Below, piece by piece: positions 6,683-49,000 of a stretch of 53,560 bases of DNA. A program made the translations under genes and the position numbers. This DNA comes from an uncultured Bacteroidales bacterium (GTDB taxonomy: Bacteria; Bacteroidota; Bacteroidia; Bacteroidales; Paludibacteraceae), in NCBI GenBank assembly GCA_900319005.1, contig ONMV01000011.1, forward strand, positions 1-53,560. The letters are read 5' to 3'. The stretch's first letter is position 1, and every line of letters starts with the position of its first letter. Below the pieces are notes generated by a model. The model saw only the letters and a program-made list of their open reading frames with translations. It did no database searches and was not told where the DNA came from.

Positions 6683-8866
6683 TTATAGTTTCGCCTGAAT
6701 GCTCACTTTTGCCCAAGCGCCGGGTTGGAGGATTCCGCCGTAGTCGTAATAGCGCGTATGGGTGATATTTGTACACTCGGCAGCGACACGCAGGTAGCGG
6801 TTCTGCCAATAGATAGAACCATCCAATAACCATACGGGCTGATAGTTCTGCACAGCCCCTTCGGCATTGTTGAACTGACCTTCTCGTTTCTGAAAGCGCA
6901 CCGTCCAGGAAGCGCCAAAACCTTTGTAGATACCATGCTCCAGACGGATAGACAGTTTATGACTCAGGTAATCGAGATAGCGTGAACCCGTCTCTTTGAG
7001 GTCCAAGTTCAGATAGGTGTATGCGTAATCGACCGCCACACAACGCAGCCATTCGTTAAGCCGGTATGCGATAGAAAGTTCTATGCCTGTAGCATCCACA
7101 CGTTGCTGATTCTGTGCGTGATACGGTCGTTTCGTATCTTCCGGCACATACACCCAGTCGATGATGTCTCTTCCCCATCGGTAGTACCAATCGGCGGACA
7201 AAGTGAGCATGCCTTTGTCCGATTTGTCATTTGAGATTTGAGATTTGACATTTCCTAATTTCCATTCTCCTTTGTAGCCGACTGAGAGGAGCCATGCTTT
7301 TTCGGGATTGAGGTTGCGGTTACCCAGTTGGTTTCCGGCGTTATAATAGAGATCGGTGAACGTGGGCATGCGCAGCGAGCGGTTGGCATTCAGATAAACG
7401 GTTCCGCCTTTTTTGAAGTCATAGCCGATGTTTGCTCCTCCACCCAGATGGTGTCCGAATTGGGAGTTGTATGTGCCGTTGATGCCGATGGAAGCGGCTA
7501 AACCTGCATAATAGAAGCTTTGTTCGGCATAGTAGTTTGTATGGAAACGATTACCTCCTTTGACCAGATCCAATACGCGAACTTGGGATAGCGGAAAACC
7601 TTCTACATTCGGTACTTGTCCGTTTGGATTGATGGTGTCACCAAGGTTCGTAGAGTGCATGTTTTCATTACGGATACTGATTCCGAAGGATGTGGTTCCC
7701 ACACGCGAAGCATAATGGGCAGCCAGCGCGGCGGAAGCGGTCTGCGCGAAGTGAAAATTACCGTACAGTCGCTGTCCGCGATGCCATTCGTAGCGGTCGT
7801 AGTTAGCGCGATAAGCCGCTTGAGCGTCTAAGCGCCATGCCCCCCAGCGATGTGCGTACTTGGCGGACGCAAAAGCTGTACGCGTGGCGTCAAACTGGTC
7901 TTGCGACCCAAAACCATAACCCATTCCCAACCCTGCATCTTTCCATTGCGCACCGGCCTGCACATCGAGTTCTCTCCATCGTGTCTGGAAATAGAGGTTC
8001 ACCAGTTGAAAATCCGAGTTACGGCATGCAATGGCTTCTTTCTCCGTGGGTTGTGGTGCCAGATAACCTTCCGCCCGCGAGTAATCCGCCGCAATGTTGA
8101 ATTGTGCCTCTTTGTGTGCCACGGATGCCGCCACCTGCGGATGAAACCAACCGTTCATGCCCCCGTCCAGACGTAAAATAGTTTGAGAGGTTGTACCTCT
8201 GTTTGAAGTTGTTTGCGCTTCGCTGTTAGAAACAGTTTGTTTCGTGACGATATTGATTGCTCCGGAGAAGGCTCCGTGCAGATGTGCCGAGGTGCCTTGC
8301 AACACTTCGATGCGCTCAATCATCGCCGGTGTAATCGGCAGGTTCAGCGCATAATGCCCCGTATGGAAGTCGCTCATACTCACGCCGTTGAGCAACACAA
8401 GGACTTGGTCGAACGTGCCGCCGCGCATACTGATGTCGGCCTGTGCACCGTTAGCTCCCCGTGTCCGCACATCCAGCCCCGGCAGGTATTGCAGGATATC
8501 CGCCACGGTCTGTATCGGCAACGCCTCTATCTCGGCGTGCGATACCTGTGTGATAAGACGGAAGGCTTCCGAATGAACTTCAGCTTTCTGAGAAACGACC
8601 AACACCTCCTGAAGACTAAGTTGCCGGTCGGTTAAGGGGATGGAATCCGCCGTTCCCGATGAATTTTCCGCCATGGTCGGTATGCAGAACAAGCCGCAGA
8701 GGGCAACTGCTACGCTCTTACCATGCTTGAGCATCTCCAGATCGGTCATATAACCCGCCACGTGTCCGATAGTCACCTCGCGGTGAAGTGAACGGAAAGC
8801 GGCGTACGCCTTGTGGCAGAACCGACGGAAACGGATTCCTGTTTTGAATGAATAATTTTTGAACAT
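6683..8866 (-). CDS. TonB-dependent outer membrane receptor
   Basis: A 727-residue outer-membrane gated barrel for TonB-driven uptake; the ligand is unknown. The start is ATG 8866, because the frame upstream runs through low-complexity and promoter sequence. The N-terminus has RFCHKAYAAFRSLHREVTIG, a pattern common before the signal region of Bacteroidales receptors, then a hydrophobic export segment. The plug follows (DILQYLPGLDVRTRGANGAQ ... DISMRGGTFDQVLVLLNGV ... IERIEVLQGTSAHLHG ... GAINIVTKQ), then a beta barrel ending in an aromatic strand. The overall pattern resembles BtuB/CirA-like vitamin or siderophore receptors, with no SusC-type N-terminal domain. An in-frame 42-base heptamer array inserts about 14 residues in a likely surface loop (about residues 535-548). 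It is convergent with the hydrolase and divergent from the thioesterase. Confidence 0.9.
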   Translation of the reverse strand: MFKNYSFKTGIRFRRFCHKAYAAFRSLHREVTIGHVAGYMTDLEMLKHGKSVAVALCGLFCIPTMAENSSGTADSIPLTDRQLSLQEVLVVSQKAEVHSEAFRLITQVSHAEIEALPIQTVADILQYLPGLDVRTRGANGAQADISMRGGTFDQVLVLLNGVSMSDFHTGHYALNLPITPAMIERIEVLQGTSAHLHGAFSGAINIVTKQTVSNSEAQTTSNRGTTSQTILRLDGGMNGWFHPQVAASVAHKEAQFNIAADYSRAEGYLAPQPTEKEAIACRNSDFQLVNLYFQTRWRELDVQAGAQWKDAGLGMGYGFGSQDQFDATRTAFASAKYAHRWGAWRLDAQAAYRANYDRYEWHRGQRLYGNFHFAQTASAALAAHYASRVGTTSFGISIRNENMHSTNLGDTINPNGQVPNVEGFPLSQVRVLDLVKGGNRFHTNYYAEQSFYYAGLAASIGINGTYNSQFGHHLGGGANIGYDFKKGGTVYLNANRSLRMPTFTDLYYNAGNQLGNRNLNPEKAWLLSVGYKGEWKLGNVKSQISNDKSDKGMLTLSADWYYRWGRDIIDWVYVPEDTKRPYHAQNQQRVDATGIELSIAYRLNEWLRCVAVDYAYTYLNLDLKETGSRYLDYLSHKLSIRLEHGIYKGFGASWTVRFQKREGQFNNAEGAVQNYQPVWLLDGSIYWQNRYLRVAAECTNITHTRYYDYGGILQPGAWAKVSIQAKL
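7222..7263. repeat. six-unit heptamer array inside the TonB receptor gene
   Basis: ATTTGTC, ATTTGAG, ATTTGAG, ATTTGAC, ATTTCCT, AATTTCC: six consecutive 7-base units, 42 bases in all, which is 14 codons and keeps the reading frame. The encoded peptide on the minus strand is close to LGNVKSQISNDKSD, unlike the surrounding barrel strands. Confidence 0.8.
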
Positions 8867-8895
8867 TTGAATAGGTGCTTTTTGTAAAAAGCGCG

Positions 8896-8927
8896 CAAAG
8901 TTACAAAAAATAATTGAAAATTGAAAA
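8896..8927 (-). promoter_or_regulatory. possible promoter of the TonB receptor gene
   Basis: The -7 box TAACTTTG (minus strand, 8896-8903) is clear, but at the usual 20-base distance the -33 position reads TTTT instead of TTTG. The ATG is 29 bases downstream. It is weaker than the other promoters in the window, which may mean that an activator is needed. Confidence 0.5.
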
Positions 8928-8941
8928 TAAAAAACAGAAAA

Positions 8942-8973
8942 TTTGCATAATTCATGTTTTTTTTGTACTTTTG
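8942..8973 (+). promoter_or_regulatory. promoter of the acyl-ACP thioesterase gene
   Basis: TTTG 8942-8945, 20-base spacer, TACTTTTG 8966-8973. The ATG is 19 bases downstream. Confidence 0.8.
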
Positions 8974-8992
8974 CATTCTCAAAGTATAAATT

Positions 8993-13832: not shown

Positions 13833-13870
13833 AATTGTTATTTATTGTTAATTATCAATTATCAACTATT
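13833..13870. repeat. heptamer array at the hpt stop codon
   Basis: AATTGTT, a 10-base variant, then AATTATC, AATTATC, AACTATT. The last unit contains CTA, which is the TAG stop of hpt on the minus strand. The array fills the hpt-pgm gap. Confidence 0.75.
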
Positions 13871-15849: not shown

Positions 15850-16119
15850 TTACTTACGAATACCGAGTTCTTTGATGATAGCACGATAACGCTCAATGTC
15901 TTTTGCCTTCAGGTAATCCAACATGCGACGACGCTTACCAACAAGTGAAGTCAGTGCGCGCTCGGTACCGAAGTCCTTGCGGTTTTCCTTCAGGTGCTCG
16001 GTCAAGTGATTGATACGGAAGGTGAATAAAGCGATTTGGCTCTCAGCAGAACCGGTGTTCTTAGCGTCGTTGCCGTATTTAGCGAACAACTCTGCTTTCT
16101 TCTCAGAAGTTAAATACAT
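15850..16119 (-). CDS. rpsO: 30S ribosomal protein S15
   Basis: An 89-residue primary 16S rRNA-binding protein of the small subunit platform. The sequence is complete and typical: KAELFAKYGNDAKNTGSAES, then QIALFTFRINHLTEHLKENR, then LVGKRRRMLDYLKAKDIERY, ending ELGIRK. It is monocistronic, with its own promoter, a 143-base leader and a strong terminator. The leader holds a heptamer-like array next to the start and an A/T-stemmed hairpin near its 5' end, so autoregulation as in other S15 genes is possible but not shown. Confidence 0.97.
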   Translation of the reverse strand: MYLTSEKKAELFAKYGNDAKNTGSAESQIALFTFRINHLTEHLKENRKDFGTERALTSLVGKRRRMLDYLKAKDIERYRAIIKELGIRK

Positions 16120-16123
16120 AAAT

Positions 16124-16181
16124 CATTTACGATTTGTTCATTTACCATTTGGTCATTTTTCATTCGACCATTGGGCAAATG
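16124..16181. repeat. degenerate 7/8-bp array in the rpsO leader
   Basis: Units CATTTAC, GATTTGTT, CATTTAC, CATTTGGT, CATTTTT, CATTCGAC, CATTGGG. It starts 5 bases upstream of the rpsO ATG, so it covers the ribosome-landing region of the mRNA. This is one of the few arrays placed 5' of a gene. Confidence 0.65.
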
Positions 16182-16321: not shown

Positions 16322-17203
16322 TTACTTTTTTAGTTGGAAAGGGAATGAACCGATCATGTTTCCATCGCAAAAGAAGTCTATTGTATAGAATCCATCAACA
16401 GCTTTCCCCAGCGCTTGATAGCACGTACCTTCATATGCTTCGCCTGTATATTCGATTTGTTGCGTCAGCGAGTACGGTATCTCGTCGCTCTCGAAAGCAA
16501 AGAGGTGTTCTTCATCCTCTCCTATCAGATTACCATTCGGATCCATAACCCGTACATACAGATCTTTGAGTCCCGGCGTGCAGGTGATGTTTTTCGCTAT
16601 TATGAAGTCAAACTGCAGTTTGCGTAGATGACTCACCATGCGCGTTTTGTGGTCGTTCTTATTGAGCATCGTCACTGTGCAGGCTGTGACCTCCATCATC
16701 GATGCGCGAGTGACCGTCTCAGCCAATTGAGAATTGACAATTTCCAATTGAGAATTCTGCTCTTTGACTTGCTGGTTCTCCGCTCTATATTGTTGGTTTT
16801 CTGCTGTTAATCTGGCATTTGTGGCATTGAGCGAATCGATCTGGCGTACATAATCTTTCATGACCGTGCGGACGGTAGCTAACTCTTTTTTTAGCTCTGC
16901 AATCTTCCGTGCATTGGATGCCTTGGTATGACGCAATTCTTCGAGTAAGTCCTGTACGCGTTGTTGCTCTCTGCTCAGCAGATCTTGCAGCGAGTCGTTT
17001 CGGATATCCATCTGTTGATACCCGTCGAACTGAATGGCTAAATCCTCGTACTCCTCTTGCAGTTCCTCTTTTTCAATCGTCATCTGTTCTAAAATCTCGT
17101 TCAGTTCGTTACGCTGCGTCATGTTCCATGCCACTAAACCGACAATAACCGCCACTAACAGGACGATGAGAAACCATATTTGTTTGTTTTTTTGCTCTGT
17201 CAT
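16322..17203 (-). CDS. membrane-anchored coiled-coil protein of unknown function
   Basis: A 293-residue protein I do not recognise by name. After a short charged N-terminus (MTEQKNKQ), one transmembrane helix IWFLIVLLVAVIVGLVAWNM spans about residues 9-28. Residues 30-165 are a long coiled coil rich in Glu, Gln, Leu and Arg. The last 120 residues look globular and beta-rich (VTACTVTMLNKNDHKTRMVS ... LKDLYVRVMDPNGNLIGEDE). It is probably inner-membrane anchored with a periplasmic globular end. A 35-base heptamer array adds QNSQLEIVNSQL-like residues at about 149-160, at the end of the coiled coil. It overlaps the murF stop by 4 bases and is the last gene of the envelope operon. Confidence 0.75.
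   Translation of the reverse strand: MTEQKNKQIWFLIVLLVAVIVGLVAWNMTQRNELNEILEQMTIEKEELQEEYEDLAIQFDGYQQMDIRNDSLQDLLSREQQRVQDLLEELRHTKASNARKIAELKKELATVRTVMKDYVRQIDSLNATNARLTAENQQYRAENQQVKEQNSQLEIVNSQLAETVTRASMMEVTACTVTMLNKNDHKTRMVSHLRKLQFDFIIAKNITCTPGLKDLYVRVMDPNGNLIGEDEEHLFAFESDEIPYSLTQQIEYTGEAYEGTCYQALGKAVDGFYTIDFFCDGNMIGSFPFQLKK
16725..16759. repeat. five-unit heptamer array in the coiled-coil gene
   Basis: AATTGAG, AATTGAC, AATTTCC, AATTGAG, AATTCTG: five 7-base units read in frame, at the boundary of coiled coil and globular domain. Confidence 0.78.
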
Positions 17204-18378
17204 AATAACGTAATCACTTTCTCTAATTGGTTGCTACGGCTTCCTTTAAGCAAAACAGTGTAACCGATGATCGGTTCTTGTCTGAGGAAGGCGCACAACG
17301 CTTCTACGTTCTCAAAAATCGGGTAAGGAGCTGTTGTCTCTTTATATTCCTCACCCACTAATAATACCTTATCCGCTTTGCGTTCCAGCAGCATGTTGAC
17401 GATGTTCTGATGCTCCTGTGCACTATATTCTCCTAATTCGCGCATCGCTCCAAGGATGTAACAATTTCCTTTGAAGGCATTGATAGCAGCCTGCATAGAA
17501 GTCGGATTGGCGTTATAGGCATCAATCACCAGGGTGTTCTTTTCTGTCTGCATCAACTGAGAACGGTTATTGGAGGGTATATACGCGCGGATGGCAGCTA
17601 AACCCCTTGTTTCCGCAACACCGAAATACAACCCCACGCGAAGTGCCGCAGAGACGTTCTCGGCATTGTAGTTGCCTACTAAATGAGTACCTTCCGGCAT
17701 CGTGCCCGTAGAATAATTGACAATTGACAATTGACAGTTGACAATTTGTTTTTTTGCTTCTTCTAACATCTTATCCAGATAATGGTTGTCTTCGTTGAGG
17801 AAGACAGTACCCTTATGGGCGACGAGGTAATCGTACAACTCCCGTTTAGTAGTTTGCACGCCTTCGAAAGAGCCGAAACCCTGTAGATGCGCTTTTCCGA
17901 CGTTGGTAATAAGACCGAAATTAGGTTCCGCAATCTCCACGAGCTCTTTGATGTCTCCCGGATGGCTGGCTCCCATTTCTACGATAGCCATCTCATGCGC
18001 GCGCGTTATATTTAATAAGGTGAGCGGCACTCCGAGGCTGTTATTCAGGTTGCCTTGCGTGTAATAGATATTGTATTTCGTTTTTAGCACCGCGGCGCAA
18101 AGTTCCTTGGTTGTCGTCTTGCCGTTAGTGCCGGTGATGGCTAAGATGGGCAGCCCTAATTCGCGACGCCAAGCGCGCGCAAGATCTTGTACTTCCGCAA
18201 GAGCGTTTTCTCCGCAGATGACGTACTCTGCTCCTTGCGCTTTTGCTTGCTCTACGAAATCGTTACCATCGAAATGCTCCCCTTTTAGTGCAACAAAGAT
18301 AGAGCCGGAAGTGACCTTCCGGCTATCTGTTGTAACTTGGAGCGCTTCTTTATTTTTTATTAGGAAGTTCCAATCCAT
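17200..18378 (-). CDS. murF: UDP-N-acetylmuramoyl-tripeptide--D-alanyl-D-alanine ligase
   Basis: Adds D-Ala-D-Ala to the muramyl tripeptide, the last cytoplasmic step of the peptidoglycan precursor. It has 392 residues from ATG 18378; the longer frame from 18399 runs into the MFS gene. The N-terminal domain has VTTDSRKVTSGSIFVALKGE, the ATP loop ILAITGTNGKTTTKE near residue 100, then VEMGASHPGDIKEL and LITNVGKAHLQGFG. The C-terminal domain has VIDAYNANPTSMQAAI and LGAMRELGEYS. Between FLNEDNHYLDKM and EGTHLVGNYNAENV the central domain is shorter than I expect for Bacteroides MurF. It also contains a heptamer-array peptide (QIVNCQLSIVNY, about residues 210-221), suggesting that the array replaced native sequence. 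Its start overlaps the MFS gene by 29 bases. Confidence 0.93.
   Translation of the reverse strand: MDWNFLIKNKEALQVTTDSRKVTSGSIFVALKGEHFDGNDFVEQAKAQGAEYVICGENALAEVQDLARAWRRELGLPILAITGTNGKTTTKELCAAVLKTKYNIYYTQGNLNNSLGVPLTLLNITRAHEMAIVEMGASHPGDIKELVEIAEPNFGLITNVGKAHLQGFGSFEGVQTTKRELYDYLVAHKGTVFLNEDNHYLDKMLEEAKKQIVNCQLSIVNYSTGTMPEGTHLVGNYNAENVSAALRVGLYFGVAETRGLAAIRAYIPSNNRSQLMQTEKNTLVIDAYNANPTSMQAAINAFKGNCYILGAMRELGEYSAQEHQNIVNMLLERKADKVLLVGEEYKETTAPYPIFENVEALCAFLRQEPIIGYTVLLKGSRSNQLEKVITLL
17715..17749. repeat. five-unit heptamer array in murF
   Basis: AATTGAC, AATTGAC, AATTGAC, AGTTGAC, AATTTGT: the cleanest array in the window, 35 bases, inside the coding frame of an essential-type gene. Confidence 0.85.
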
Positions 18379-25164: not shown

Positions 25165-26523
25165 TTAATTTTTTATGAGTAAGCGAAAAGCGTCCGTCAC
25201 TTTCTTAACCGGCACAATCTCAATAGAGTAGCGCCCTGTCTCTACCTTTTGCTCGGCAGGGATGAGGATGCGACGGAAACCTAATTTCTGGGCTTCGGAG
25301 ATACGTTGTTCGATGCGGTTGACCGGGCGAATCTCTCCTGCCAAACCCACTTCTCCGCAAAGGCATGTACCTGCGTCCAAGGCGATGTCCATATTACTGC
25401 TCAGAACGGCAGCCAGAACCGCCAGATCAATAGCAGGGTCTTGCACTTTGAGGCCACCTGCTATATTGAGGAAGACATCTTTTTGGAGCAGTTTGAAACC
25501 CACGCGTTTCTCCAAGACAGCCAATAACATGTTTAGTCGCCGTCCGTCAAACCCGGTAGAGGAGCGCTGCGGCGTACCATAAGCGGCAGAGGAGACGAGT
25601 GCTTGTACTTCGATAAGGAACGGTCTTACCCCTTCGACTGCTGCGGCGATAGCGATGCCGCTCAAGCCTTCTCGAGCTGTAGAGAGCAGTAATTCCGAGG
25701 GATTAGTCACTTCCCTCAGACCATCCTGCCGCATCTCATAGATTCCGATCTCGGACGTTGAGCCGAACCGGTTCTTCTGCGCACGCAGAATACGGTACAT
25801 ATATTGCTGGTCGCCCTCGAATTGCAGCACGGTGTCCACGATGTGTTCCAATACTTTAGGCCCCGCCAGCGAACCTTCTTTGTTAATATGTCCGATTATG
25901 ATGAACGGTATATTGCGCGTTTTGGCAAACTCCAAAATTCGAGCAGCACACTCGCGTACTTGCGTGAGGCTGCCGATGGAGGCTTCAACTACCTCTGTGC
26001 CAATTGTTTGGATGGAGTCAATGACTACTATCTCGGGTTCCAGTTCTTTTACCTGCTCCAAGATGCGCTCTAACGACGTCTCGGAAGAAATGTATAAATT
26101 TTCCGCATTGCCGGCTAAGCGTTCGGCGCGCAGTTTGAGTTGGCGTACGGACTCCTCTCCGGAAGCGTAGAAGGTCTTTCGCTCGCCTTGTTGCATGAGC
26201 ACTTGGAGCGCGAGGGTTGATTTGCCGATACCGGGTTCACCGCCCAAGAGCACAAGACTTCCCGGAACCAGACCTCCTCCTAAGACACGATTAAACTCGC
26301 CGTTAAACATGTCAATCCGCATCTCGTTGGTAGCGACAACGTCTTGCAGACGCTTCGGCTGACTCGTCTTTGAAATCTGACGGCTGACGGCTGAATGCTG
26401 ATGGCTTTCAATCACCTCCTCTTCATACGTGCCCCATTCGCCGCAGATAGGACAGCGTCCTAACATCTGCGGAGCTTTAGCACCGCAGGACGAACAGACA
26501 TATTGGATAGTTGACTTTGCCAT
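25165..26523 (-). CDS. radA: DNA repair protein RadA
   Basis: A RecA-related helicase for branch migration in recombination; 452 residues. The N-terminal zinc finger has C10-x2-C13 and C24-x2-C27. Walker A is GGEPGIGKST (about residue 94), Walker B is in EIVVIDSIQTI, and the RadA-specific motif KNRFGST lies near 260. The C-terminal Lon-like domain (SSAAYGTPQRSSTGFDGRRL ... LCGEVGLAGEIRPVNRIEQR) completes the architecture. A heptamer array adds about ten residues (SHQHSAVSRQISK region, about 38-50) in the linker between zinc finger and ATPase, where length should be tolerated. It is the last gene of the dnaN-DUF4954-rnz-radA run. Confidence 0.95.
   Translation of the reverse strand: MAKSTIQYVCSSCGAKAPQMLGRCPICGEWGTYEEEVIESHQHSAVSRQISKTSQPKRLQDVVATNEMRIDMFNGEFNRVLGGGLVPGSLVLLGGEPGIGKSTLALQVLMQQGERKTFYASGEESVRQLKLRAERLAGNAENLYISSETSLERILEQVKELEPEIVVIDSIQTIGTEVVEASIGSLTQVRECAARILEFAKTRNIPFIIIGHINKEGSLAGPKVLEHIVDTVLQFEGDQQYMYRILRAQKNRFGSTSEIGIYEMRQDGLREVTNPSELLLSTAREGLSGIAIAAAVEGVRPFLIEVQALVSSAAYGTPQRSSTGFDGRRLNMLLAVLEKRVGFKLLQKDVFLNIAGGLKVQDPAIDLAVLAAVLSSNMDIALDAGTCLCGEVGLAGEIRPVNRIEQRISEAQKLGFRRILIPAEQKVETGRYSIEIVPVKKVTDAFRLLIKN
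26377..26404. repeat. four-unit heptamer array in radA
   Basis: CTGACGG, CTGACGG, CTGAATG, CTGATGG. This is GC-richer than the other arrays but keeps the 7-base period and is read in frame. Confidence 0.78.
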
Positions 26524-26549: not shown

Positions 26550-27410
26550 TTAGAGAGTTATAACGTCGTTTTCCTCTGCAAGGATAGTGTTATCGAAGAT
26601 GGGTTTGGCCTCTTGCAAGAAGAGATTATGGTCTTCAACCCGTGCGGAATAATGACCCAAAATCAGTTTTTTTGCCTTTGCCATCTTGGCTATCGTAGCC
26701 GCTTCGGCTGCCGTAGAGTGTTTGACCTCTTTGCTTCGGGCTCCGTGTTCCTGCAAGAAAGTGGATTCGTGATAAAGCGTATCCACATCTTCGATGATAG
26801 GAATGATTTTCTCGCTGTACTGGGTGTCCGAACAATAGGCGTAACGCTTGTGGGTCTCATGGCTGAATGAACCGTCTTCGTTCTTCACCCGATGGGTCTC
26901 CTTGAAGAGAAAACCGCAGGTGGGTACACCATGTTTGAGAGGAATAGTTTCCACGGAAACAGTGCGATCCTCAAAAATGACCTCATGCTTGCGCGGATTG
27001 ATAGGATGAAAAATGATGTCGTATAACCGATCGTTCGCGTGGTACTCCAGAAGCGGCTTGAGTAGTTTCTCCAAATCCGGATGAGCGTAAATATGCATGG
27101 GCTGCGTACGTTTGAGCATGCCCAGCGTGGTAAGCAACCCGATCAGACCGAAACAGTGGTCTCCATGTAGGTGCGAAATGAAGATGTTATACAGTCTGGA
27201 GGTGTGTACCCCCAGTTTCTGCATCGTCAGGATGACCCCTTCGCCGCAATCAACGAGAAAGGACTTGTCGCACAACTCCACCAACTGCGCCGAAGGCGAG
27301 GTGGTCCTCGTCGGCTTGGCACTTCCGCATCCTAATATGGTTACTTTTCCTTCGCTCAAAATCTTCAAATTGTTAAATCTTAAAATCTTCAATTTGTGCA
27401 AGTTTGGCAA
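26550..27410 (-). CDS. rnz: ribonuclease Z
   Basis: A zinc endonuclease that trims the 3' trailer of tRNA precursors, which matters here because none of the window's tRNAs encodes CCA. It has up to 286 residues. Metallo-beta-lactamase motifs are SHLHGDHCFG (HxHxDH), DTQYSEK and the His of LILGHYSAR; the exosite arm lies around PINPRKHEVIFEDR. The true fold begins at KVTILGCGSAKPT. The preceding ~20 residues (MPNLHKLKILRFNNLKILSE) come from a heptamer-like array shared with the end of the upstream gene. The start is therefore uncertain: ATG 27410 overlaps DUF4954 by 38 bases, while a TTG just before SEGKVTIL is the alternative. Confidence 0.92.
   Translation of the reverse strand: MPNLHKLKILRFNNLKILSEGKVTILGCGSAKPTRTTSPSAQLVELCDKSFLVDCGEGVILTMQKLGVHTSRLYNIFISHLHGDHCFGLIGLLTTLGMLKRTQPMHIYAHPDLEKLLKPLLEYHANDRLYDIIFHPINPRKHEVIFEDRTVSVETIPLKHGVPTCGFLFKETHRVKNEDGSFSHETHKRYAYCSDTQYSEKIIPIIEDVDTLYHESTFLQEHGARSKEVKHSTAAEAATIAKMAKAKKLILGHYSARVEDHNLFLQEAKPIFDNTILAEENDVITL
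27356..27404. repeat. degenerate array across the DUF4954 stop and the rnz start
   Basis: Units such as AAATCTTC, AAATTGTT, AAATCTT, AAAATCTTC, AATTTG. The array encodes both the last residues of DUF4954 (AQIEDFKI) and the first ~18 of rnz in another frame. Confidence 0.65.
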
Positions 27411-30664: not shown

Positions 30665-31594
30665 ATGGCAAAAATAGGTGTTTTTGATAGCGGATACGGT
30701 GGTCTGACCATTCTGGATGCCATCCGTCGCGAGCTTCCCGAGTATGATTATGTCTATCTTGGGGACAATGCCCGTGCACCTTATGGTACGCACTCGTTCG
30801 ATGTCATCTATCGGTACACCCTTCAGGCCGTTCAATATCTCATCAACAAAAACTGTGCCTTAATCATTCTGGCGTGCAATACCGCCTCTGCGAAAGCGCT
30901 GAGAACCATTCAGCAGCATGACCTGCCGTTAATAAATGATCAAAGGGTAAATGACCAAAGGGTAAATGTCTTGGGCGTCATTCGTCCGACGGTAGAAGCG
31001 GTGCCGGCTATCACCAAAAATGGACATGTCGGCATTCTTGCCACTCCGGCTACCGTCTCCTCTGAGAGTTATGTGCTGGAGTTGGAGAAAATCTCACATA
31101 GTGAAGCTCCCTCCCTTGAGGGGAGGGCGGGGGGAAAGGTTTGTCCGCTTGTCATTACTCAACAAGCCTGCCCGCTCTGGGTGCCGCTCATCGAGGCTGG
31201 CGAACATAACGGACCGGGCACCAAGTATTTCATCGGCAAGTACCTGCGTGAGATACTCGCCAAAGATCCGCAGATTGACACCCTCGTGCTCGGTTGTACC
31301 CACTATCCGCTCATGAAAGAGCAAATCGACAACTGGCTCGAGTTTCGTCATGAACTGGATGAGTCGGAATTCCCTCTTCCGGTGAATTCACCAAGGGTGA
31401 CTACTATTGCACAAGGCGAACTCGAAGCCAAGTCTCTCGCGGATTATCTGCATCGTCACCCCGAGTACCGAGACCAACTCTCCACTAACGGGACATGCTC
31501 CTATCTGACTACAGAAAATGCGGACCGCTTCTCGCAATCCGCATCTCAATTTATCGGTTCACCTGTTCAGGCGGAGCACATAGCGCTTTCCTAA
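30665..31594 (+). CDS. murI: glutamate racemase with two in-frame repeat insertions
   Basis: Supplies D-glutamate for peptidoglycan; 309 residues from ATG 30665. The longer frame from 30590 crosses both promoters and is rejected. The fold opens with KIGVFDSGYGGLTILDAI. The two catalytic Cys lie in ILACNTASAKALR and LVLGCTHYPLMKE. YLGDNARAPYGTHS binds substrate. Two stretches look foreign: INDQRVNDQRVN (about residues 89-101, from a 15-base tandem repeat) and EAPSLEGRAGGK (about 148-159, from a C/T-rich palindromic element). Both are in loops and keep the frame. It is convergent with sufB, with 7 bases between stops. In many Bacteroides murI follows the skp genes; here it is elsewhere. Confidence 0.94.
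   Translation: MAKIGVFDSGYGGLTILDAIRRELPEYDYVYLGDNARAPYGTHSFDVIYRYTLQAVQYLINKNCALIILACNTASAKALRTIQQHDLPLINDQRVNDQRVNVLGVIRPTVEAVPAITKNGHVGILATPATVSSESYVLELEKISHSEAPSLEGRAGGKVCPLVITQQACPLWVPLIEAGEHNGPGTKYFIGKYLREILAKDPQIDTLVLGCTHYPLMKEQIDNWLEFRHELDESEFPLPVNSPRVTTIAQGELEAKSLADYLHRHPEYRDQLSTNGTCSYLTTENADRFSQSASQFIGSPVQAEHIALS
30934..30970. repeat. 15-bp tandem repeat in murI
   Basis: AAATGATCAAAGGGT at 30934-30948, AAATGACCAAAGGGT at 30949-30963, then AAATGTC. Each unit is 7+8 bases and encodes five residues (NDQRV), so it is frame-neutral. Confidence 0.8.
31107..31141. repeat. C/T-rich palindromic insertion in murI
   Basis: CTCCCTCCCTTGAGGGGAGG followed by GCGGGGGGAAAGG. It shares its core with the hflX element at 15481. 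It encodes EAPSLEGRAGGK in frame. Confidence 0.78.
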
Positions 31595-33059: not shown

Positions 33060-33090
33060 TTCTTAATGTTTAATTCTTAATTTTTAATTC
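33056..33090. repeat. heptamer array at the sufB start codon
   Basis: CCAATTC, TTAATGT, TTAATTC, TTAATTT, TTAATTC. The first unit contains CAA, the minus-strand TTG start of sufB. The array fills the space between that start and the tRNA-Cys terminator. Confidence 0.75.
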
Positions 33091-34186: not shown

Positions 34187-34227
34187 TCGTACATACATCG
34201 TACATCGTACATTTGTCCTTCGTACAT
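34187..34227. repeat. GTACAT-type array between the rRNA methyltransferase and the exonuclease
   Basis: Units CGTACATA, CATCGTACAT, CGTACAT, TTGTCCTT, CGTACAT. It begins 5 bases after the methyltransferase stop. Confidence 0.68.
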
Positions 34228-35471: not shown

Positions 35472-35477
35472 CCTTTC

Positions 35478-35512
35478 AACTTTCAACTTTCAATTTTCAA
35501 CTTTCAACTATT
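35478..35512. repeat. heptamer array between the nucleosidase and the rRNA methyltransferase
   Basis: AACTTTC, AACTTTC, AATTTTC, AACTTTC, AACTATTCC. The terminal unit contains the CTA that is the nucleosidase TAG stop. Confidence 0.8.
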
Positions 35513-35999
35513 CCACTCCGTGTGTGAGGTTATGGTAGGCGTGGAGCGAGAGGTTGTCGCTCACGTGCTTGAAACTATGCAGGTTCTTGAAACCGAGCGC
35601 AGCGATGAAAGCCAACTCCATGTCGAAGACGCAGTCTTTGTAGTCCGAAGCCAGCACAAAATCGCAGTTGGTGTAGCAGGGAGCCTGAAGGCAATTTGAG
35701 ATGTGAGATGTGAGATGTGAGATTTTGAGTTCGGGCTCCGGGTACGTCACATTGGGGTGATTTAGCCGCGCTTCGGTTACTTCAACCCAGGTGCCCAAAT
35801 CGAAGTTCGCACTACCAGCATAGCCGATGTTATAGAGTTCGGCTTCGCGGTCGAGGTTTTGCAACGAACGGATGATATTGATTGCTCCCACACCGGTGTA
35901 GATGATCTCGGCGTCGGCGAGGTCCAAACCCAGTTTTTCCTTCACCTGGGCTATCAATCCGTACTCGCCTTCTTCTGCCATAATGATATATTTTGCCAT
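35508..35999 (-). CDS. phosphorylase/nucleosidase-superfamily protein
   Basis: A 163-residue protein of the purine nucleoside phosphorylase/MTA nucleosidase fold. The start is ATG 35999, just after a promoter; the longer frame to 36095 crosses that promoter and the tRNA-Met gene. AEIIYTGVGAINIIRSL matches the phosphate/ribose loop, ELYNIGYAGSANFDLGTWVE the GYAG loop, and FVLASDYKDCVFDMELAFIA the ME-type active-site strand near the C-terminus. It is shorter than standard MtnN (about 230). A heptamer array adds KISHLTSHISNCLQ-like residues (about 91-102) in the middle. Probably a nucleoside or AMP-related hydrolase of the Bacteroidetes short branch. Confidence 0.72.
   Translation of the reverse strand: MAKYIIMAEEGEYGLIAQVKEKLGLDLADAEIIYTGVGAINIIRSLQNLDREAELYNIGYAGSANFDLGTWVEVTEARLNHPNVTYPEPELKISHLTSHISNCLQAPCYTNCDFVLASDYKDCVFDMELAFIAALGFKNLHSFKHVSDNLSLHAYHNLTHGVE
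35697..35724. repeat. four-unit heptamer array in the nucleosidase gene
   Basis: TGAGATG, TGAGATG, TGAGATG, TGAGATT, read in frame on the minus strand as KISHLTSHIS. Confidence 0.85.
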
Positions 36000-37701: not shown

Positions 37702-37760
37702 CGGAGCGTCCTCCCGACGGAACGGGAGAATCGGCTTCCGCCTAAGAGGGTAATTCCTCC

Positions 37761-37802
37761 AACTATCAATTATCAACTATCAATTCTCAATTCTCAATCT
37801 CT
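37761..37802. repeat. six-unit heptamer array at the Zn-peptidase stop codon
   Basis: AACTATC, AATTATC, AACTATC, AATTCTC, AATTCTC, AATCTCT: six units, 42 bases, entering the last codons of the peptidase gene. Confidence 0.85.
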
Positions 37803-40381: not shown

Positions 40382-40382
40382 G

Positions 40383-42195: not shown

Positions 42196-42200
42196 TTCTC

Positions 42201-42228
42201 TAAATCCTAAATCCTAAACCCTAAACTA
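42201..42228. repeat. four-unit heptamer array at the stop of the 657-residue protein gene
   Basis: TAAATCC, TAAATCC, TAAACCC, TAAACTA. The last unit contains the CTA that forms the minus-strand TAG stop. The CCCTAAA-like look is coincidental. Confidence 0.82.
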
Positions 42229-44199
42229 TTTCATCCTTCCCGTCACATCGTACATCCGTCCGTCCCGGAGGATATATACATGTCCGTCAATAATCACCTT
42301 GGTACATTGTACTTTGTCACTTTGTACTTCGTCCACTCCTGTCGGCATCTTCGCTTGCAGCAGCAGGCCGTATCCTTCGGTTGTACCTTGTGCCAACTCG
42401 ATTTCGTAGGGGCTCTCGTTGAGGTTACAGATGATCTTTCCCTCGTGCGTCAGGAAGACATCCGCTTCGCTTGCTGCCTGCATTGCAATCAAGTATCGGC
42501 CTGCTGCGGGAGCACGAAACGTAAGCGGGTAAGTGGCCTGACCGTTCACTAATGGGAAAGCCGCCGCGCATAACTGCGTACCATAAGCCGGAACCCATAT
42601 CTGCGCACATCGCGCATCGCCCATACTCATCTTCGCTACATCGCGCCCGATCTCGTAACTGTCACTATCCTCCTCGCCGGCGCGCAGAAAGAGTCGGTCC
42701 TCTTCTTCTCCGGCTTCGTTCATTAACCGCACAACATACGTCTTCTGCTCCATCGCGCTTAAAGCGCGCGCGGGCGCCAGCGCTATGCTGCCGATGTCAT
42801 CTCTCGTGACAGTGATAGCGCTTCCGTCCGATTGGTAGAAGAACGCGCTGCCCAACATCAGCTTCACGTCATCGCTGGCGCGCAGTTTGAATGCGTTAGC
42901 TTCGTGGTCAAGGAATTGCAAATCCAAAGAACCTATATGCGATTTGCCTAAATAGGGATTACCCAATCCGTTCCAACCGGCATGATCCGGGTTCGTAGAA
43001 GGAAACTCCTGCGTCGTCATCTGACTCGAACCGTTGACCACGTCGTTATAGAGCGCGGCTTCGGCTTGTTTCTTAAATCGCAGTGTCTTATAATCGGTGT
43101 CTCCAACGGAGATGATATAGAGCACACCGGGTTGCAGTACGCCGCTATGTTTCTTCCAAGCGTATTGCCCTTGCGCACGGATGTCTCCGTGGTAAGCCAT
43201 AATCGTATAGCCCGTTTCGAGAGCCAGTTTGGAGTCCTGGAAATAAACGCCGTCGGTGGCACTCACCTCAAAAGGAACAGAGAAAGCGTACCATCCGTAC
43301 GAAGCCTGTTCGGCGGGAGTTAACTCCAATTCAAAGAATACATCTCCGGTGGTGGTGATATGAGGGTTGGTGATCTCGGCGCATTTGCCGTTGCTGTCTC
43401 CAGATCCGGAAGCTGAGCCTAAAGCGCTCTTGATCGTCAGATCTTTGACTGTCAGCTCAGCCTCTCCTCCTATGGTTCCGCCTGCTTCGATGGTCAGACT
43501 CTCCATCTCTGTAGGCTCATCAATATTCATCGTCTCTCCGTCAGTTATCGTCGCTTCTCCACTCTTCGTGTACGTGAAAACTACATCATCGATGATCAGA
43601 TCTTCGTCACTACTGGAAGCGCCAGCCTTCGATAGCATGATTCTGATATAGTAATCGGTGTTCGGCGAAGAATTCGGAATGTCGTATGAAAAATAATAGG
43701 GAGTTGTGCTTAAAAATATACTCACCTGATTTGTAAACGGAGTCCAATCATTTCCGTTAGAAGAAAGCGCCCCGTTGCTCCACGTCGTCCATTTTGTACC
43801 ATCCGTAGAGTAGGATACGTTCATATAAATGATGCTCGCAGTGTTTTTTGCTTTGAATGTGATATTCGTCAGTCCTTTTATGGGTGTAGTAGTTCGTGCG
43901 TGACCAAATTTAGATGCCTCATTTTTATACCATCTTATCAGGCATGATTTCCCGTTGATTGCGCTTGCGTTTGATATAATATTACCATAATATATCTCCC
44001 ATCCAATGTTACAATCGCTTTCGGTTGTATTTAAATTTCTTATGGTTGGAATACCATAGGAACCTGTAGATGCTGTTTGGAAGCCTTCTGTTTTAGTCTC
44101 TGTTTCGCCCCATGCGTTTGTTAGTCCAAGCGTGAGCATCATAATCAGCGACACTGCTTTCTTGCCCATGCTGCGCATCGCGTTAAAGTGGATATACAT
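42226..44199 (-). CDS. secreted surface protein with sorting-like C-terminal tail (657 residues)
   Basis: An exported protein of unknown function. KKAVSLIMMLTLGLTNAWGE is the signal peptide; starts at 44199, 44178 or 44169 are all possible. Residues 35-215 form a beta-rich binding-like domain (DWTPFTNQVSIFLSTTPYYF ... DEDLIIDDVVFTYTKSG), followed by a short beta-solenoid-like stretch (MESLTIEAGGTIGGEAELTV). The C-terminal ~380 residues (YGWYAFSVPFEVSATDG, YHGDIRAQGQYAWKKHSGVL, GWNGLGNPYLGKSHIG, EGYGLLLQAKMPTGVDEV) are clearly homologous to the end of the giant protein at 46040. It ends with VIIDGHVYILRDGRMYDVTG, a short tail typical of Bacteroidales secreted proteins. Probably surface attached. 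It is followed by the small-peptide gene. Confidence 0.82.
   Translation of the reverse strand: MYIHFNAMRSMGKKAVSLIMMLTLGLTNAWGETETKTEGFQTASTGSYGIPTIRNLNTTESDCNIGWEIYYGNIISNASAINGKSCLIRWYKNEASKFGHARTTTPIKGLTNITFKAKNTASIIYMNVSYSTDGTKWTTWSNGALSSNGNDWTPFTNQVSIFLSTTPYYFSYDIPNSSPNTDYYIRIMLSKAGASSSDEDLIIDDVVFTYTKSGEATITDGETMNIDEPTEMESLTIEAGGTIGGEAELTVKDLTIKSALGSASGSGDSNGKCAEITNPHITTTGDVFFELELTPAEQASYGWYAFSVPFEVSATDGVYFQDSKLALETGYTIMAYHGDIRAQGQYAWKKHSGVLQPGVLYIISVGDTDYKTLRFKKQAEAALYNDVVNGSSQMTTQEFPSTNPDHAGWNGLGNPYLGKSHIGSLDLQFLDHEANAFKLRASDDVKLMLGSAFFYQSDGSAITVTRDDIGSIALAPARALSAMEQKTYVVRLMNEAGEEEDRLFLRAGEEDSDSYEIGRDVAKMSMGDARCAQIWVPAYGTQLCAAAFPLVNGQATYPLTFRAPAAGRYLIAMQAASEADVFLTHEGKIICNLNESPYEIELAQGTTEGYGLLLQAKMPTGVDEVQSDKVQCTKVIIDGHVYILRDGRMYDVTGRMK
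42300..42336. repeat. heptamer array before the C-terminal tail of the 657-residue protein
   Basis: TACATTG, TACTTTG, TCACTTTG, TACTTCG. It encodes VQSDKVQCTK directly before the sorting-like tail. The homologous position of the giant protein has the same array. Confidence 0.78.
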
Positions 44200-45062: not shown

Positions 45063-45069
45063 ATTTATC

Positions 45070-45110
45070 TCTAATTCCCTAACTCCTTCACTCGTTCATT
45101 CCTTCATTCC
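45070..45110. repeat. degenerate 8-bp array after the small-peptide stop
   Basis: TAATTCCC, TAACTCC, TTCACTCG, TTCATTCC, TTCATTCC. It begins at the stop codon of the peptide gene and leads to the terminator. Confidence 0.65.
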
Positions 45111-45281
45111 TTAGAACACCTTCGTGGAGTCGCTGTTTTGGATGACGGGATTGACGTCCATTCTCCTCTTAGGAGCTGTTCCCGCTTCCGGAGCTGAGTT
45201 AGAATTCAGGAGCATTACGCTCATATCCGCCAGCACTGGCTGCACGGTCATTTTTGGTTGTATGTAAGTATATTTTTTCAT
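45111..45281 (-). CDS. small peptide gene (56 residues)
   Basis: ATG 45281 to TAA 45111 reads MKKYTYIQPKMTVQPVLADM, then SVMLLNSNSAPEAGTAPKRR and a polar end STKVF. It has no signal peptide or membrane helix. It shares the N-terminal K-x-Y-x-x-P-x-M and the central VM...AP-x-x-G...APK(R/K)R plan with the 47-residue peptide at 42052, and the C-terminal VF ending also matches. It lies 16 bases after DUF2442 and before a terminator. I infer that a peptide of this family originally followed each large surface-protein gene and that other modules were inserted here. Confidence 0.65.
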   Translation of the reverse strand: MKKYTYIQPKMTVQPVLADMSVMLLNSNSAPEAGTAPKRRMDVNPVIQNSDSTKVF

Positions 45282-46072: not shown

Positions 46073-49000
46073 TCCCCCTCTATCCCCCTCCCATTTGCCG
46101 GTCACGTCGTACATCTGTCCGCCGCGGAGGATATATACGTGCTCGTCAATAATCACCTTGGTACATTGTCCTTTGTCACTTTGTACTTCGTCCACTCCCG
46201 TCGGCGTCATCGGCATCTTCGCTTGCAGCAGCAGACCGTAACCTTCGTTGTTGCCTTTTGCGAACTCATTGATGTACTCGCCCATCGAGAGATCCCAGAT
46301 GATCGCACCCTCGTAGGTCAGATACAGGTCGGCATTCTCCATTGCCGGAGCGGCGATGGTGTACTCGCCTGCCTTCGGTGCGTAGAGCGTCAGGTCATAA
46401 ACAGCCTGGTCGTTTGCCATCGGAGCGTAAACCATACAGAGCTTAGTGTTGTATGCCTTGCCGAAGATCTGTGCTACCTTCGGAGTCGAGGTCATCGTCA
46501 TCTTCGCGAGATCTTTACCGGTCTCGTACTCGTTGAGCGCATCCTCGGAAGCCGAGATATAGAGTTTGTCGGTGTATTCTTCGTTGCCGAAGGTCACTTT
46601 GACATCCTTGATCTCCTTCGCTGCCTGACGAGCCGGAGCGTAATTTGCACTTCCACTGGCTGCAGCGAACGTCATAGTGCCATCTTCAGTAGCTTGGATG
46701 AAGAACGGAGTACCTACTATGAAGTTTGTCTCATTCTCATTAAATGCCTCGTAGGTATAACTTGCTGGATTAAGCACTTGCGCTTTGTAAGCCACTTGAC
46801 CGTACATCAGCGTCGGGTTACCCACACCGTTCCAACCATTGTCATTGCCGCCGGTCGAGCTTGCATATTCATACAACGCTTTCGTGTTGCCGGCTACGAT
46901 AGCACCGTTAGCCGTCTTCTTGAAGCGGTAGGTCGTGCGCAAACCGTCAACGGTCATGAGGTAGAATGTACCCGGTACCAATACGCCGCGGAACTTCTTC
47001 CAACCGTAATTACCTGTTGCACGGATGTCTCCGTGGTAATCCATGATGGCGTAGTTCACTTCGTTCACTAACTTGTTGCCGTCGAGGTCATAGATACCGT
47101 TGATTGCATCAACCGGGAACGGAACGGTGAACGCGTGCCATTTCTCCGGATTACCGTTGTCACCGAGCGTAATGTCGATATAAGCATCTTCTTGTGCCTC
47201 GAAGTTCGATGCCGTTGCACCGTTCAACTGACCGGACTTACCGCTTGCCATCGTCGTCTCGATAGTGAACGTACCAACCACTGTCAGTTTGTTTGCATCC
47301 AAAACAACCTGTCCACCTGCCTCAACGGTCAAGTCGCCGATAGAAGCTGAGGCATCTACTGTCAGTATACCACCTTCGTGGATAACGATGTCAGAGCCTG
47401 CTGCATCAGATACATTCACGCTCTCACTATCGTTAATCTCAATCTTCGGAGCCTTGTAGTAAAGAACGACAGGGTTCTGTACACTCGAACTGCTTGCATA
47501 GCAAGAGAATACCGGGCTACCATTATTCGGATTATAACGCATTATGTTACGCGTGTTTGTTCCGGTAGCAGTAACTGTTGCTGCTCCTTCTTCACCGATG
47601 TTAATTGTCCATATACCATTAGCGTCACTATTCTCTGCTCGTTCGTGTAGATAGTTCTTTGTATCGCTGGATGCATAGAGGTATTTTCCTCCGTTCTCGA
47701 ACGTATATTTGCCAGCCTCCGGAATGCCCAATGTGAATTTAGCTACGGCATCAGAGATGGTCAATATACCATTGTTCTCCTCGATGGCAGCCGCAGTACG
47801 GTTGTTGCTGCCTTGTGCGCCTACTGCGTATGTAGCATCGGTATTGACGATGATATATTCCTTATCGGCTGCCAATTGGCTCGTAGCTGTTACCTTGATC
47901 CACTTATCGCTGGACTTACGAGCCCAAGTAGCGGTAACCGTTACATTGAATGCCGGCATTGTGAACTTACCATCCTCGATAACCAAAGTCTGCGTTTCGC
48001 TGTTATTATCCACATAAGTAGCTACCCACTGGTCGAAGAAGTAACCTGCGTTGCTCAAGCCACTTGCCGAAGCCAGAGTAACCTCATCGCCCTCATAGTA
48101 ATCGGTTGCATCCGTCGGCGTAGTACCTTGTGAACCGCTGGTGTTGTAGGTTACGTGGAATGACGGCAGTGCTGCCCATTGTGCGTAGAGCGTAATATCC
48201 TCTGTGAAGGTATATTCTTCACCTACCGTATAAGTAGTATTGCCATTCTTCCATCCTTCGAACGTATAACCCGTACGGCTCGGACCTGCAGCAATGACAG
48301 CCTTGTTGTTCTCTGCACGCTGTACACTCGGGTTCGGCATATTCGTTACCTCATCCTCTGTGTTCTTGTCGTAAGTTACCTTCGGAACCGGAGCGTAGTA
48401 CTTGTAGAGAGCAATAGATGATTGAGAATAATCATTGTAGCAAGAGAAGAGAGAACTACTGCTATTATGTTGTAACTTATTATTGGTATTTGTTCCTTGA
48501 GCCTCAACCTCTGCAACACCTGCACTTGTGATATCTTCAATAATCCAAGAACTATTGTTGCTTAATGTTGTCTCTGTTTTCAGATGGTTATTGCCCTTAC
48601 CACCACCTGCCGCATAGATATAACCTTCGTTCACTACATCGTAGAACGCCAGCGTATTTTCTATGTTACCTGCGCGAACCTCAAAGATAGCCGGAGCTGT
48701 TGTGTAAGTCAGTCTATGATCATTCTTGCTAATCGACTGCTGAGCGCGGTTATTGTTGTTCTGCGTATTGCTTATAGCCACATTGCTTGCAGCCGCCGCG
48801 ATGATCACATAGCTACCTGCGGTTACTTCTGCTGCATCGGTTACCAACATCCAGTCGCCGCCATTTGCCCACGGATACGGAGTCCAGTTAGCGGTGAAAG
48901 TGATTTCCTTACCACCTATAGCGGCGTCATCGGCTTGGATCTCGTAAGTGTCACCAACTGCATATTCCGCTTCGTTGTACGTCCAGCTTGCCAGAACGTG

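What the first reader, a model, noticed from the sequence alone, without database searches (positions are those of the whole stretch)
7222..46196. Degenerate heptamer arrays, constant in period but not in sequence, across the whole window
About 25 arrays of 3-6 units share a 7-bp (sometimes 7/8-bp) period, yet the unit differs from array to array: AATTGAC, AACTATC, AACTTTC, TGAGATG, ATTTGAG, CTGACGG, TTAATTC, TAAATCC, TTGTACA. Within an array the units vary at one or two bases. This differs from a dispersed mobile sequence, which would share sequence. It suggests a process that makes period-7 DNA locally, such as templated slippage or a polymerase that re-copies a 7-base word. Heptanucleotide short tandemly repeated repetitive sequences are known from filamentous cyanobacteria; I do not know of a description in Bacteroidales.
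Basis: partly seen in the sequence, partly recalled or inferred. Interest (0 to 1): 0.88.

Follow-up and report, generated by a model that had tools for sequence, protein, structure and literature searches.

The report
Swappable heptamer repeats between and inside genes
A group of gut bacteria, many from ruminants, carries numerous short seven-letter tandem repeats between genes and inside flexible parts of proteins, and close relatives can hold a completely different repeat in exactly the same place; seven-letter repeats are known from other bacteria, but swapping on this scale appears unusual.

Summary
The window holds 10 stretches with at least 17/21 matches at lag 7, against a mean of 0.0 in simulations; TRF gives 21 period-7 rows against 0.65. 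The sampled genome has 152 per Mb and 80 bamA-centred related loci 141 per Mb; other Bacteroidales families gave 2 in 464 kb.

The arrays are short (median about 32 bp) and sit in gene spacers, the RadA linker, a Mur-ligase site and probable signal peptides. Relatives can hold an unrelated repeat at the same slot: another heptamer, or period 8, 11, 15, or hairpin-like repeats. Three replaced patches profiled are sharply bounded; two others less clearly.

Arrays within a locus share units more than permuted ones; one 26-bp string lies in 7 places. So copying within the genome probably adds to local slippage. The copying mechanism is inferred.

MutS and MutL are found in this genome. Only two mobile-enzyme families were searched.

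Heptamer repeats are known from cyanobacteria, Beggiatoaceae and a few Bacteroidetes. The coexisting families and frequent in-place exchange inside conserved genes make this a new variant.

The parts
3889..3919 (.). period-7 array (ACATAAC type) in the 40-bp gap between + strand ORFs 2694-3881 and 3922-4437
7222..7253 (-). period-7 array (ATTTGAC/ATTTGAG) inside the beta-barrel part of a TonB-dependent receptor ORF 6683-9010
8912..8941 (-). period-7 array (AATTGAA) near the N-terminus of the same ORF
13835..13869 (.). period-7 array (AATTATC) in the spacer between ORFs 12031-13818 and 13866-14429; L001 holds a different, period-8 sequence here
16117..16176 (.). 15-bp (7+8) repeat spacer, AAATGACCAAATGGT type; 12 relatives compared
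16725..16749 (-). period-7 array (AATTGAC/AATTGAG) inside ORF 16322-17203 (weak ZapG-like match); kept in L001
17200..18399 (-). Mur ligase host ORF (Mur_ligase, Mur_ligase_M, Mur_ligase_C)
17715..17746 (-). period-7 array (AATTGAC; sense GTCAATT) inside the Mur-ligase ORF; kept in L001; 27 of 62 labelled tips have an 'empty' form of at most 16 bp
25165..26523 (-). RadA host ORF (Zn ribbon residues 8-34, ATPase match from residue 77)
26377..26401 (-). period-7 array (CTGACGG) in the RadA linker, about residues 41-49; other repeats or unrelated sequence in relatives
27358..27389 (.). degenerate period-7/8 array at the junction of ORFs 26550-27410 and 27373-29364; 26 of 39 labelled tips have at most 24 bp here
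30933..30968 (.). 15-bp unit array TAAATGACCAAAGGG; other sequences in 25 relatives compared
33063..33089 (.). period-7 array (TTAATTT/TTAATTC) next to the start of the SufBD-like ORF 31602-33059
34194..34212 (.). short period-7 array TACATCG (2.7 copies)
35473..35509 (-). period-7 array (sense TTGAAAG) at the junction of ORFs 34233-35486 and 35508-36095
35694..35723 (-). period-7 array TGAGATG inside ORF 35508-36095 (no Pfam match)
37760..37798 (-). period-7 array (AACTATC/AATTATC), 5.6 units, at the 3' edge of ORF 37794-38480
42200..42226 (.). period-7 array CTAAATC at the 3' edge of ORF 42226-44199
42298..42329 (.). CTTTGTA period-7/8 array inside ORF 42226-44199; near-identical copy at 46157-46192
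45068..45115 (.). period-8 array ACTCCTTC
46157..46192 (.). CTTTGTA period-7/8 array inside ORF 46040-53548

Best explanation
The arrays are short tandem-repeat inserts, mostly 4-5 heptamers (about 32 bp), also with 8-, 11- and 15-bp units, typical of this Paludibacteraceae lineage. They sit where DNA appears dispensable: gene-to-gene spacers, an interdomain linker, loops and probable signal peptides. SHOWN: the period-7 excess and its absence from the other sampled families; array presence/absence and unrelated arrays at one slot in relatives; local, bounded patches in the cases profiled; some unit-number changes; unit sharing within a locus. INFERRED: patches are written during replication or repair by a nascent strand switching to repeats elsewhere in the genome and slipping in 7-nt steps; the result survives where reading frame and protein fold allow, is usually near-neutral, and is occasionally recruited, for example as a signal peptide. 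Why 7 is preferred is unknown; a polymerase-contact length has been proposed (Mrazek 2007, seen only as cited in PMC4679880 and PMC4692102).
For: Period-7 excess: 10 vs 0.0; 60 in 394 kb and 225 in 1.59 Mb; other families 2 in 464 kb. Same slot, different repeat: RadA linker compared in 46 relatives, Mur-ligase site in 61, bamA spacer in 76. L005/L006 (overall identity 0.957) hold AAAGTTG x4 vs AGAGGTT x5, and CGACTAA vs an AAATGGT type, at the same sites. Three patch bins fall to 0.804-0.828 while both neighbouring 250-bp bins stay at 0.952-0.980. In 7 close pairs, 33 of 98 divergent patches are periodic at p<=0.01 on at least one side. Repeat-type labels change 26, 40, 20 and 12 times on the BamA tree; shuffled means 31.2, 42.3, 22.0, 12.4. 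Unit sharing within loci 0.188 vs 0.092 permuted, 0 of 1000; one 26-bp string in 7 places. In coding arrays, stop triplets sense/antisense are 10/74 and 66/285, as selection for open frames predicts.
Against: Template switching was not observed. Unit ORDER is shared little beyond shuffled order: 46 pairs at >=24/25 vs 22-30 in G000, no clear excess in G002, G007, G021. The local-seed test leans slightly to local origin: 5.07 vs 4.84 and 4.90, 10 of 42 with >=6/7. Two of five replaced sites profiled show only a small or no local dip (bins 0.928 and 0.936). The Mur-ligase slot keeps phylogenetic signal: 26 changes, equal to the minimum of 300 shuffles. Many arrays are kept: 9 of 26 comparisons at >=93% flank identity are conserved and 4 keep the unit. 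65 of 98 divergent patches are not periodic. Only 7 of 27 length differences between related arrays are multiples of 7 (reciprocals counted, edges approximate). G021, the densest sample, has no MutL match, though it is 63% complete. A modest sense-strand purine bias in co-directional spacers (85 vs 48 arrays; 14 vs 9 in G000) would fit some function.
Confidence: 0.5

Rival explanations
1. Purely local replication slippage: each array grows by re-copying a 7-base word already at that place and drifts by point mutation. Differences between relatives are old arrays that decayed and were re-made from local sequence.
For: Unit-number changes of 7 and 28 bp in L011/L017, L012/L040 and L050/L054; a slight excess of the unit in the empty ortholog; no MutL match in G012, G016 and G021 and no MutS match in G018 among the genus genomes; the reported preference of bacterial repeats for 7 nt (PMC4679880, passages).
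Against: Unit sharing between distant arrays of one locus (0 of 1000 permutations); a 26-bp string with a fixed unit order in 7 places; MutS and MutL both found in the window's own genome, and over cut-off in 39 of 41 and 37 of 41 genomes searched; replacement by unrelated arrays at 91-96% flank identity.
Confidence: 0.2
2. A dedicated mobile or copying machinery (transposase, reverse transcriptase or targeting protein) inserts and exchanges these arrays.
For: Insert-like presence/absence and recurrent slots, a dispersed 26-bp string, genome-biased unit vocabularies.
Against: No shared end sequence or target duplication was noticed (by eye). Y1 transposase: 11 of 25 genus genomes have a match, best E 2.9e-8, none in G021. 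Reverse transcriptase: 5 of 25 genus genomes, none in G000 (85% complete) or G021 (63% complete). Only these two enzyme families were searched and no formal correlation was computed.
Confidence: 0.13
3. The arrays are selected binding or spacing elements: intercistronic translation or regulatory sites like those proposed for the TAACTGA repeats of Beggiatoaceae.
For: 15 of 23 (G000) and 71 of 141 (related loci) co-directional spacer arrays lie within 20 nt of, or overlap, both the stop and the next start; sense strand slightly purine-rich. PMC4679880 (abstract) places its heptamers just upstream of start codons.
Against: 23 of 77 labelled bamA slots have at most 24 bp and no array; sequences can be unrelated between relatives; 22 of 54 and 89 of 257 arrays lie inside ORFs.
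Confidence: 0.1
4. Slots are exchanged between species by homologous recombination in the conserved flanking genes.
For: The same repeat types recur at the same slot in distant genomes (Mur-ligase slot).
Against: At three replaced sites in L005/L006 and L046/L023 the bins on both sides keep the overall identity, so an imported tract would have to be very short; only these pairs were profiled for replacement.
Confidence: 0.07

Closest known systems
TAACTGA direct repeats of marine Beggiatoaceae, some cyanobacteria and five Bacteroidetes (MacGregor 2015, PMC4679880; abstract, passages and sections 12, 15, 24 seen)
   Same: Heptamer direct repeats, mostly intergenic, often just before a start codon and sometimes overlapping an upstream stop; the stop-free strand is read inside ORFs; related genomes differ. 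Paludibacter propionicigenes, one host, gives its name to Paludibacteraceae (recalled).
   Different: There one heptamer dominates and related heptamers are rarely repeated; here TAACTGA doublets are 0 in about 2.39 Mb of this lineage while many other units occur, and unrelated repeats are found at one slot.
Nostoc trnL intron P6b Class I/II repeats (PMC4476775; abstract and passages seen); the wider name STRR for cyanobacterial heptamers is recalled
   Same: Seven-nucleotide repeats; replacement of one repeat class by another at one fixed place is inferred there, repeatedly.
   Different: That case is one structured RNA stem-loop with two classes; here there are many slots, many repeat types, and protein-coding hosts.
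GGGAATC and GGGGA(C/T)T heptamers of Xanthomonas and Nostoc (PMC4692102; abstract and passages seen)
   Same: Heptameric, intergenic, mostly between the same genes, with length and sequence variation between close relatives.
   Different: A G-rich unit that may fold into quadruplexes; units here are mostly A+T-rich and many.
Rickettsia palindromic elements (recalled; only a search listing seen)
   Same: In-frame inserts in protein genes.
   Different: Palindromic families; here tandem short-period arrays of many kinds.

Membership tests
Heptanucleotide simple sequence repeats of bacteria (LSSR/STRR) | Excess of 7-bp tandem repeats over composition-matched sequence | tested here: met
   10 vs 0.0 in the window; TRF 21 vs 0.65
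Heptanucleotide simple sequence repeats of bacteria (LSSR/STRR) | Dispersed over the genome, enriched between genes | tested here: met
   60 in 394 kb sampled; 32 of 54 arrays outside ORFs although ORFs cover 0.86 of the bases (simple ORF calls)
Heptanucleotide simple sequence repeats of bacteria (LSSR/STRR) | One or few unit sequences per genome (as in the published cases seen) | tested here: not met
   60 arrays fall into 33 canonical units in G000
TAACTGA repeats | Tandem TAACTGA | tested here: not met
   0 TAACTGA doublets in the G000, 80-locus and G002-G010 sets
TAACTGA repeats | Located just upstream of start codons | tested here: met
   Median distance to the downstream start 9 and 6 nt in co-directional spacers
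REP/BIME with RAYT transposase | Cognate Y1 (RAYT-type) transposase in the genome | tested here: inconclusive
   G000 has 2 weak matches (best 2.1e-6); 11 of 25 genus genomes have a match, G021 none
REP/BIME with RAYT transposase | Palindromic unit | tested here: not met
   4-nt palindromes in 0.454 of 328 heptamer units vs 0.422 shuffled (sd 0.021); only a 4-nt core was tested
Mismatch-repair-deficient slippage | Loss of MutS or MutL in the array-bearing genome | tested here: not met
   Both found in G000; MutS over cut-off in 39 of 41, MutL in 37 of 41; missing ones include MutL in G012, G016, G021 and MutS in G018, of 92, 78, 63 and 54% completeness

The most novel reading that the evidence does not exclude
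An active writing-over process in these bacteria repeatedly erases 30-60 bp at fixed permissive slots, including inside conserved proteins (RadA linker, a Mur ligase, the 5' end of bamA), and writes a new short-period array drawn from a genome-biased repertoire, using a copying machinery with a built-in 7-nt step that has not been described.
Probability: 0.18. Interest if true: 0.88.

Novelty: new variant of a known kind. Interest (0 to 1): 0.62.

Why it matters
Heptamer repeats have been noted in scattered bacteria, with a polymerase-length idea but little comparative data. Here a densely sampled lineage offers hundreds of arrays, several orthologous slots and pairs of relatives near 96% identity, so birth, growth, replacement and loss can be counted. 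It also suggests an unusual source of protein change: linkers, loops and probable signal peptides of conserved proteins overwritten by tandem heptamers, with reading frame as a main filter.

Tried and rejected
1) Mismatch-repair loss as the cause: not supported for this genome, MutS and MutL are found; a few incomplete genus genomes lack a match. 2) RAYT or reverse-transcriptase mobilisation: no supporting distribution. 3) Palindromic heptamer cores folding back: no clear excess, 0.454 vs 0.422, sd 0.021. 4) Long-tract recombination: flanking bins unchanged at three sites. 5) Whole-array copying as a general rule: unit order exceeds shuffled order only at the strictest cut-offs in G000 and not in G002, G007 or G021. 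6) Local seed: weak. 7) Nearby arrays as inverted copies: 7 of 33 close pairs against 20 of 617 far pairs, but 4 of the 7 come from one locus, L078; left open. 8) TTGTACA words as promoter boxes: considered on recall only; one search did not settle it. 9) Assembly artefact: judged unlikely because frames stay open and the records come from several projects, but not tested on reads.

Limits: gene calls are longest-ORF calls. The 80 related loci all surround bamA, so they sample one region. Arrays near locus ends or without neighbours were dropped (54 of 60 and 257 of 268 kept). In one search, 12 random control sites were run; ten gave 0 or 1 periodic insert, two gave many (20 of 77, 15 of 25; mostly periods 6 and 9), so single-slot counts are not proof alone. 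The labels put 70 of 225 entries in 'other' and are rough. Reciprocal comparisons count twice. Outgroup samples are small for many genomes, and G039 had no readable bases.
Full report
What was checked. The window is contig C33 of a 2.18-Mb, 41-contig draft genome. Its BamA has relatives in MAGs titled Bacteroidales, Bacteroidia or Paludibacteraceae, many from ruminants; the nearest, L001, is 98% identical in its best segment. A lag scan found 10 period-7 stretches (>=17/21) against 0.0 in 20 order-3 Markov simulations, and TRF found 21 period-7 rows against 0.65. In 393,906 sampled bases of this genome (18%) there are 60, or 152 per Mb; in 80 related loci, all around bamA, 225 in 1.59 Mb. Other genus samples range from 38 per Mb (G004, 3 in 80 kb) to 250 (G021, 15 in 60 kb), with 0 in 11 kb of G012/G014. 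Fifteen genomes of other families with readable bases gave 2 in 463,891. Periods 11 and 8, and 14, 15, 16, 21, 22, are also raised in the lineage. Array length has a median of 31.5 bp in G000 and 32 in the 80 loci, with the commonest value 32 in both.

Where they lie. With simple ORF calls, of 54 arrays in G000, 22 are inside ORFs, 23 in co-directional spacers, 6 convergent and 3 divergent; in the other loci 89, 141, 18 and 9 of 257. In co-directional spacers 15 of 23 and 71 of 141 arrays reach within 20 nt of, or overlap, both the stop and the next start: the array is in effect the whole spacer. Inside ORFs the stop-poor strand is read (10/74 and 66/285 stop triplets sense/antisense). Hosts in the window include RadA, in the linker between its zinc ribbon and ATPase, a Mur ligase, at the end of the aligned part of the middle domain, and a TonB-dependent receptor barrel.

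Same slot, other repeat. The RadA linker of the window reads as CAGCCGT-type heptamers; L001, 95% identical in RadA, has a period-8 CGAAATAT-type array; L011 has AGAGGTT, L013 GAAAGGC, several others a GCGGTCTGTCAG-type repeat, L018 a palindromic CCCTCCCC repeat; others show no clear repeat. Against L001, the arrays at 16725, 17715 and 27358 are kept while the sites at 13835, 16117, 26377 and 30933 differ. At the Mur-ligase site 27 of 62 labelled tips have at most 16 bp; others have GTCAATT heptamers, CCTAGG 11-mers, GCGGTC repeats or an AAATGACCAAATGGT repeat. Periodic inserts (p about <=0.02 on shuffles, periods 6-12) were 4 of 11, 15 of 60, 28 of 73, 14 of 46, 11 of 27, 9 of 25 and 1 of 6 testable inserts at seven slots; of 12 random control sites ten had 0 or 1, but two had many, at periods 6 and 9 (20 of 77 and 15 of 25; perhaps conserved coding sequence, not tested). 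On a BamA tree the repeat type at four slots changes 26, 40, 20 and 12 times; 300 label shuffles average 31.2, 42.3, 22.0 and 12.4. Only the Mur-ligase slot is clearly below its shuffles.

Close pairs. From 270 arrays with flanks, 2702 orthologous comparisons were made. At >=93% flank identity 26 comparisons split into 9 conserved, 4 same unit with changed length or units, 2 absent, 1 replaced by another periodic insert and 10 other sequence; at 90-93%, 32 split into 7 conserved, 7 conserved with indel, 3 same unit, 6 replaced by periodic, 3 absent and 6 other; at 85-90%, of 122, 13, 8, 4, 35, 27 and 35 for conserved, conserved with indel, same unit, replaced by periodic, absent and other. L005 and L006 hold AAAGTTG x4 against AGAGGTT x5 at one site and CGACTAA against an AAATGGT type at another. 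Identity profiles: L005/L006 bin 13750 is 0.824 between 0.972 and 0.976; L046/L023 bins 16000 and 19000 are 0.804 and 0.828 between 0.952 and 0.980; the other two replaced sites give bins of 0.928 and 0.936, the latter with neighbours no higher. Without conditioning on arrays, 33 of 98 divergent patches in seven close pairs are periodic at p<=0.01 on at least one side, with period 7 on 23 sides and 15 on 10. Of 27 length differences between related arrays 7 are multiples of 7, among them real unit gains in L011/L017, L012/L040 and L050/L054. Filled and empty forms differ by a multiple of 3 in 19 of 42 and of 7 in 6 of 42.

Shared vocabulary. Non-orthologous arrays of one locus share a unit in 0.188 of 313 pairs; permuting locus labels gives 0.092, maximum 0.154 in 1000. 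Within sampled genomes the share is 0.194 (G000), 0.136 (G002), 0.225 (G007), 0.184 (G021) and 0 of 3 pairs (G004); between them 0.039-0.09, except 0.183 for G000 with G021. In G000 the string AATTAAAAATTAAAAATTA(A/C)GAATTA lies in 7 places, with the variant unit third; the same words with the variant unit first were not found, and second once; flanks look unrelated by eye. Overall, shared unit order exceeds unit-shuffled arrays only at the strictest cut-offs (46 pairs vs 22-30 at >=24/25 in G000) and not in the other three genomes. So arrays share words more than whole texts.

Exaptation. In L023, L046 and L029 the heptamer array encodes the start, MKKLSIINYQLSIIIAALL, of the protein after bamA; L066 has a non-array start there (I think it Skp-like and secreted, not tested by a family search). 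The 5' end of bamA in L004, L040 and L041 holds CCTTTCAC-type arrays where the sister genomes L007, L012 and L014 do not (signal peptide inferred from position).

Mechanism. The evidence fits near-neutral inserts made and changed by slippage plus copying of repeat words from elsewhere in the genome, filtered by reading frame and protein tolerance. The copying step is inferred. MutS and MutL are found in this genome; MutL has no match in G021, the densest sample, which is 63% complete. No reverse transcriptase is found in G000 and only two weak Y1 transposase matches. The preference for 7 is unexplained.

Comparison. PMC4679880 (abstract, passages, sections 12, 15 and 24) describes TAACTGA repeats with similar placement and reports them in five Bacteroidetes; PMC4476775 (abstract, passages) infers repeated replacement of one repeat class by another in a Nostoc intron; PMC4692102 (abstract, passages) finds sequence and length variation of heptamers between two Xanthomonas. 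Searches for Paludibacteraceae with tandem repeat (0 papers), heptanucleotide with tandem repeats and Bacteroidetes (1 paper) and related terms showed no description of this system in their listings; subscription journals are mostly not held. I file it as a new variant of bacterial heptanucleotide repeats.

Noticed in passing
L023:12645, L046:12639, L029:12633, L025:12651, L036:12660, L033:12642: Heptamer arrays encode the hydrophobic start (MKKLSIINYQLSIII type) of the protein after bamA; L005, L006 and L069 use an ATTCATT array instead.
   Followed up: partly
L004:9980 (vs L007), L012:10019 (array in L040), L014:8341 (array in L041): CCTTTCAC arrays at the 5' end of bamA in L004, L040 and L041, absent in the sister genomes; likely array-built signal peptides.
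   Followed up: partly
L002, L003, L005, L006, L016, L072 and others, bamA and RadA slots: A second repeat type, GACCGC/GCGGTC units often with AAAGAATAAAGAC spacers, uses the same slots as the heptamers.
   Followed up: no
L002, L036, L040, L041, L046, L066: CCTAGG-centred repeats, about 11 bp, at the same slots; period 11 is the strongest after 7 and its multiple 14 (65 stretches in 80 loci).
   Followed up: no
L078:458-556, L078:1386-1486, L078:11652-11818, L082:19014-19110, L087:3255-3313, L090:12611-12739: Neighbouring arrays in inverted orientation within 200 bp: 7 of 33 close pairs vs 20 of 617 far pairs; could be hairpins or inverted copying.
   Followed up: partly
window 42298-42329 and 46157-46192: Near-identical CTTTGTA arrays with similar flanks inside two ORFs (42226-44199 and the 2502-aa ORF 46040-53548), suggesting a duplicated segment.
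   Followed up: no
window 40380-40773: tmRNA gene on the minus strand; tRNAs at 36072-36143 and 37628-37701 lie within a few hundred bases of arrays.
   Followed up: no
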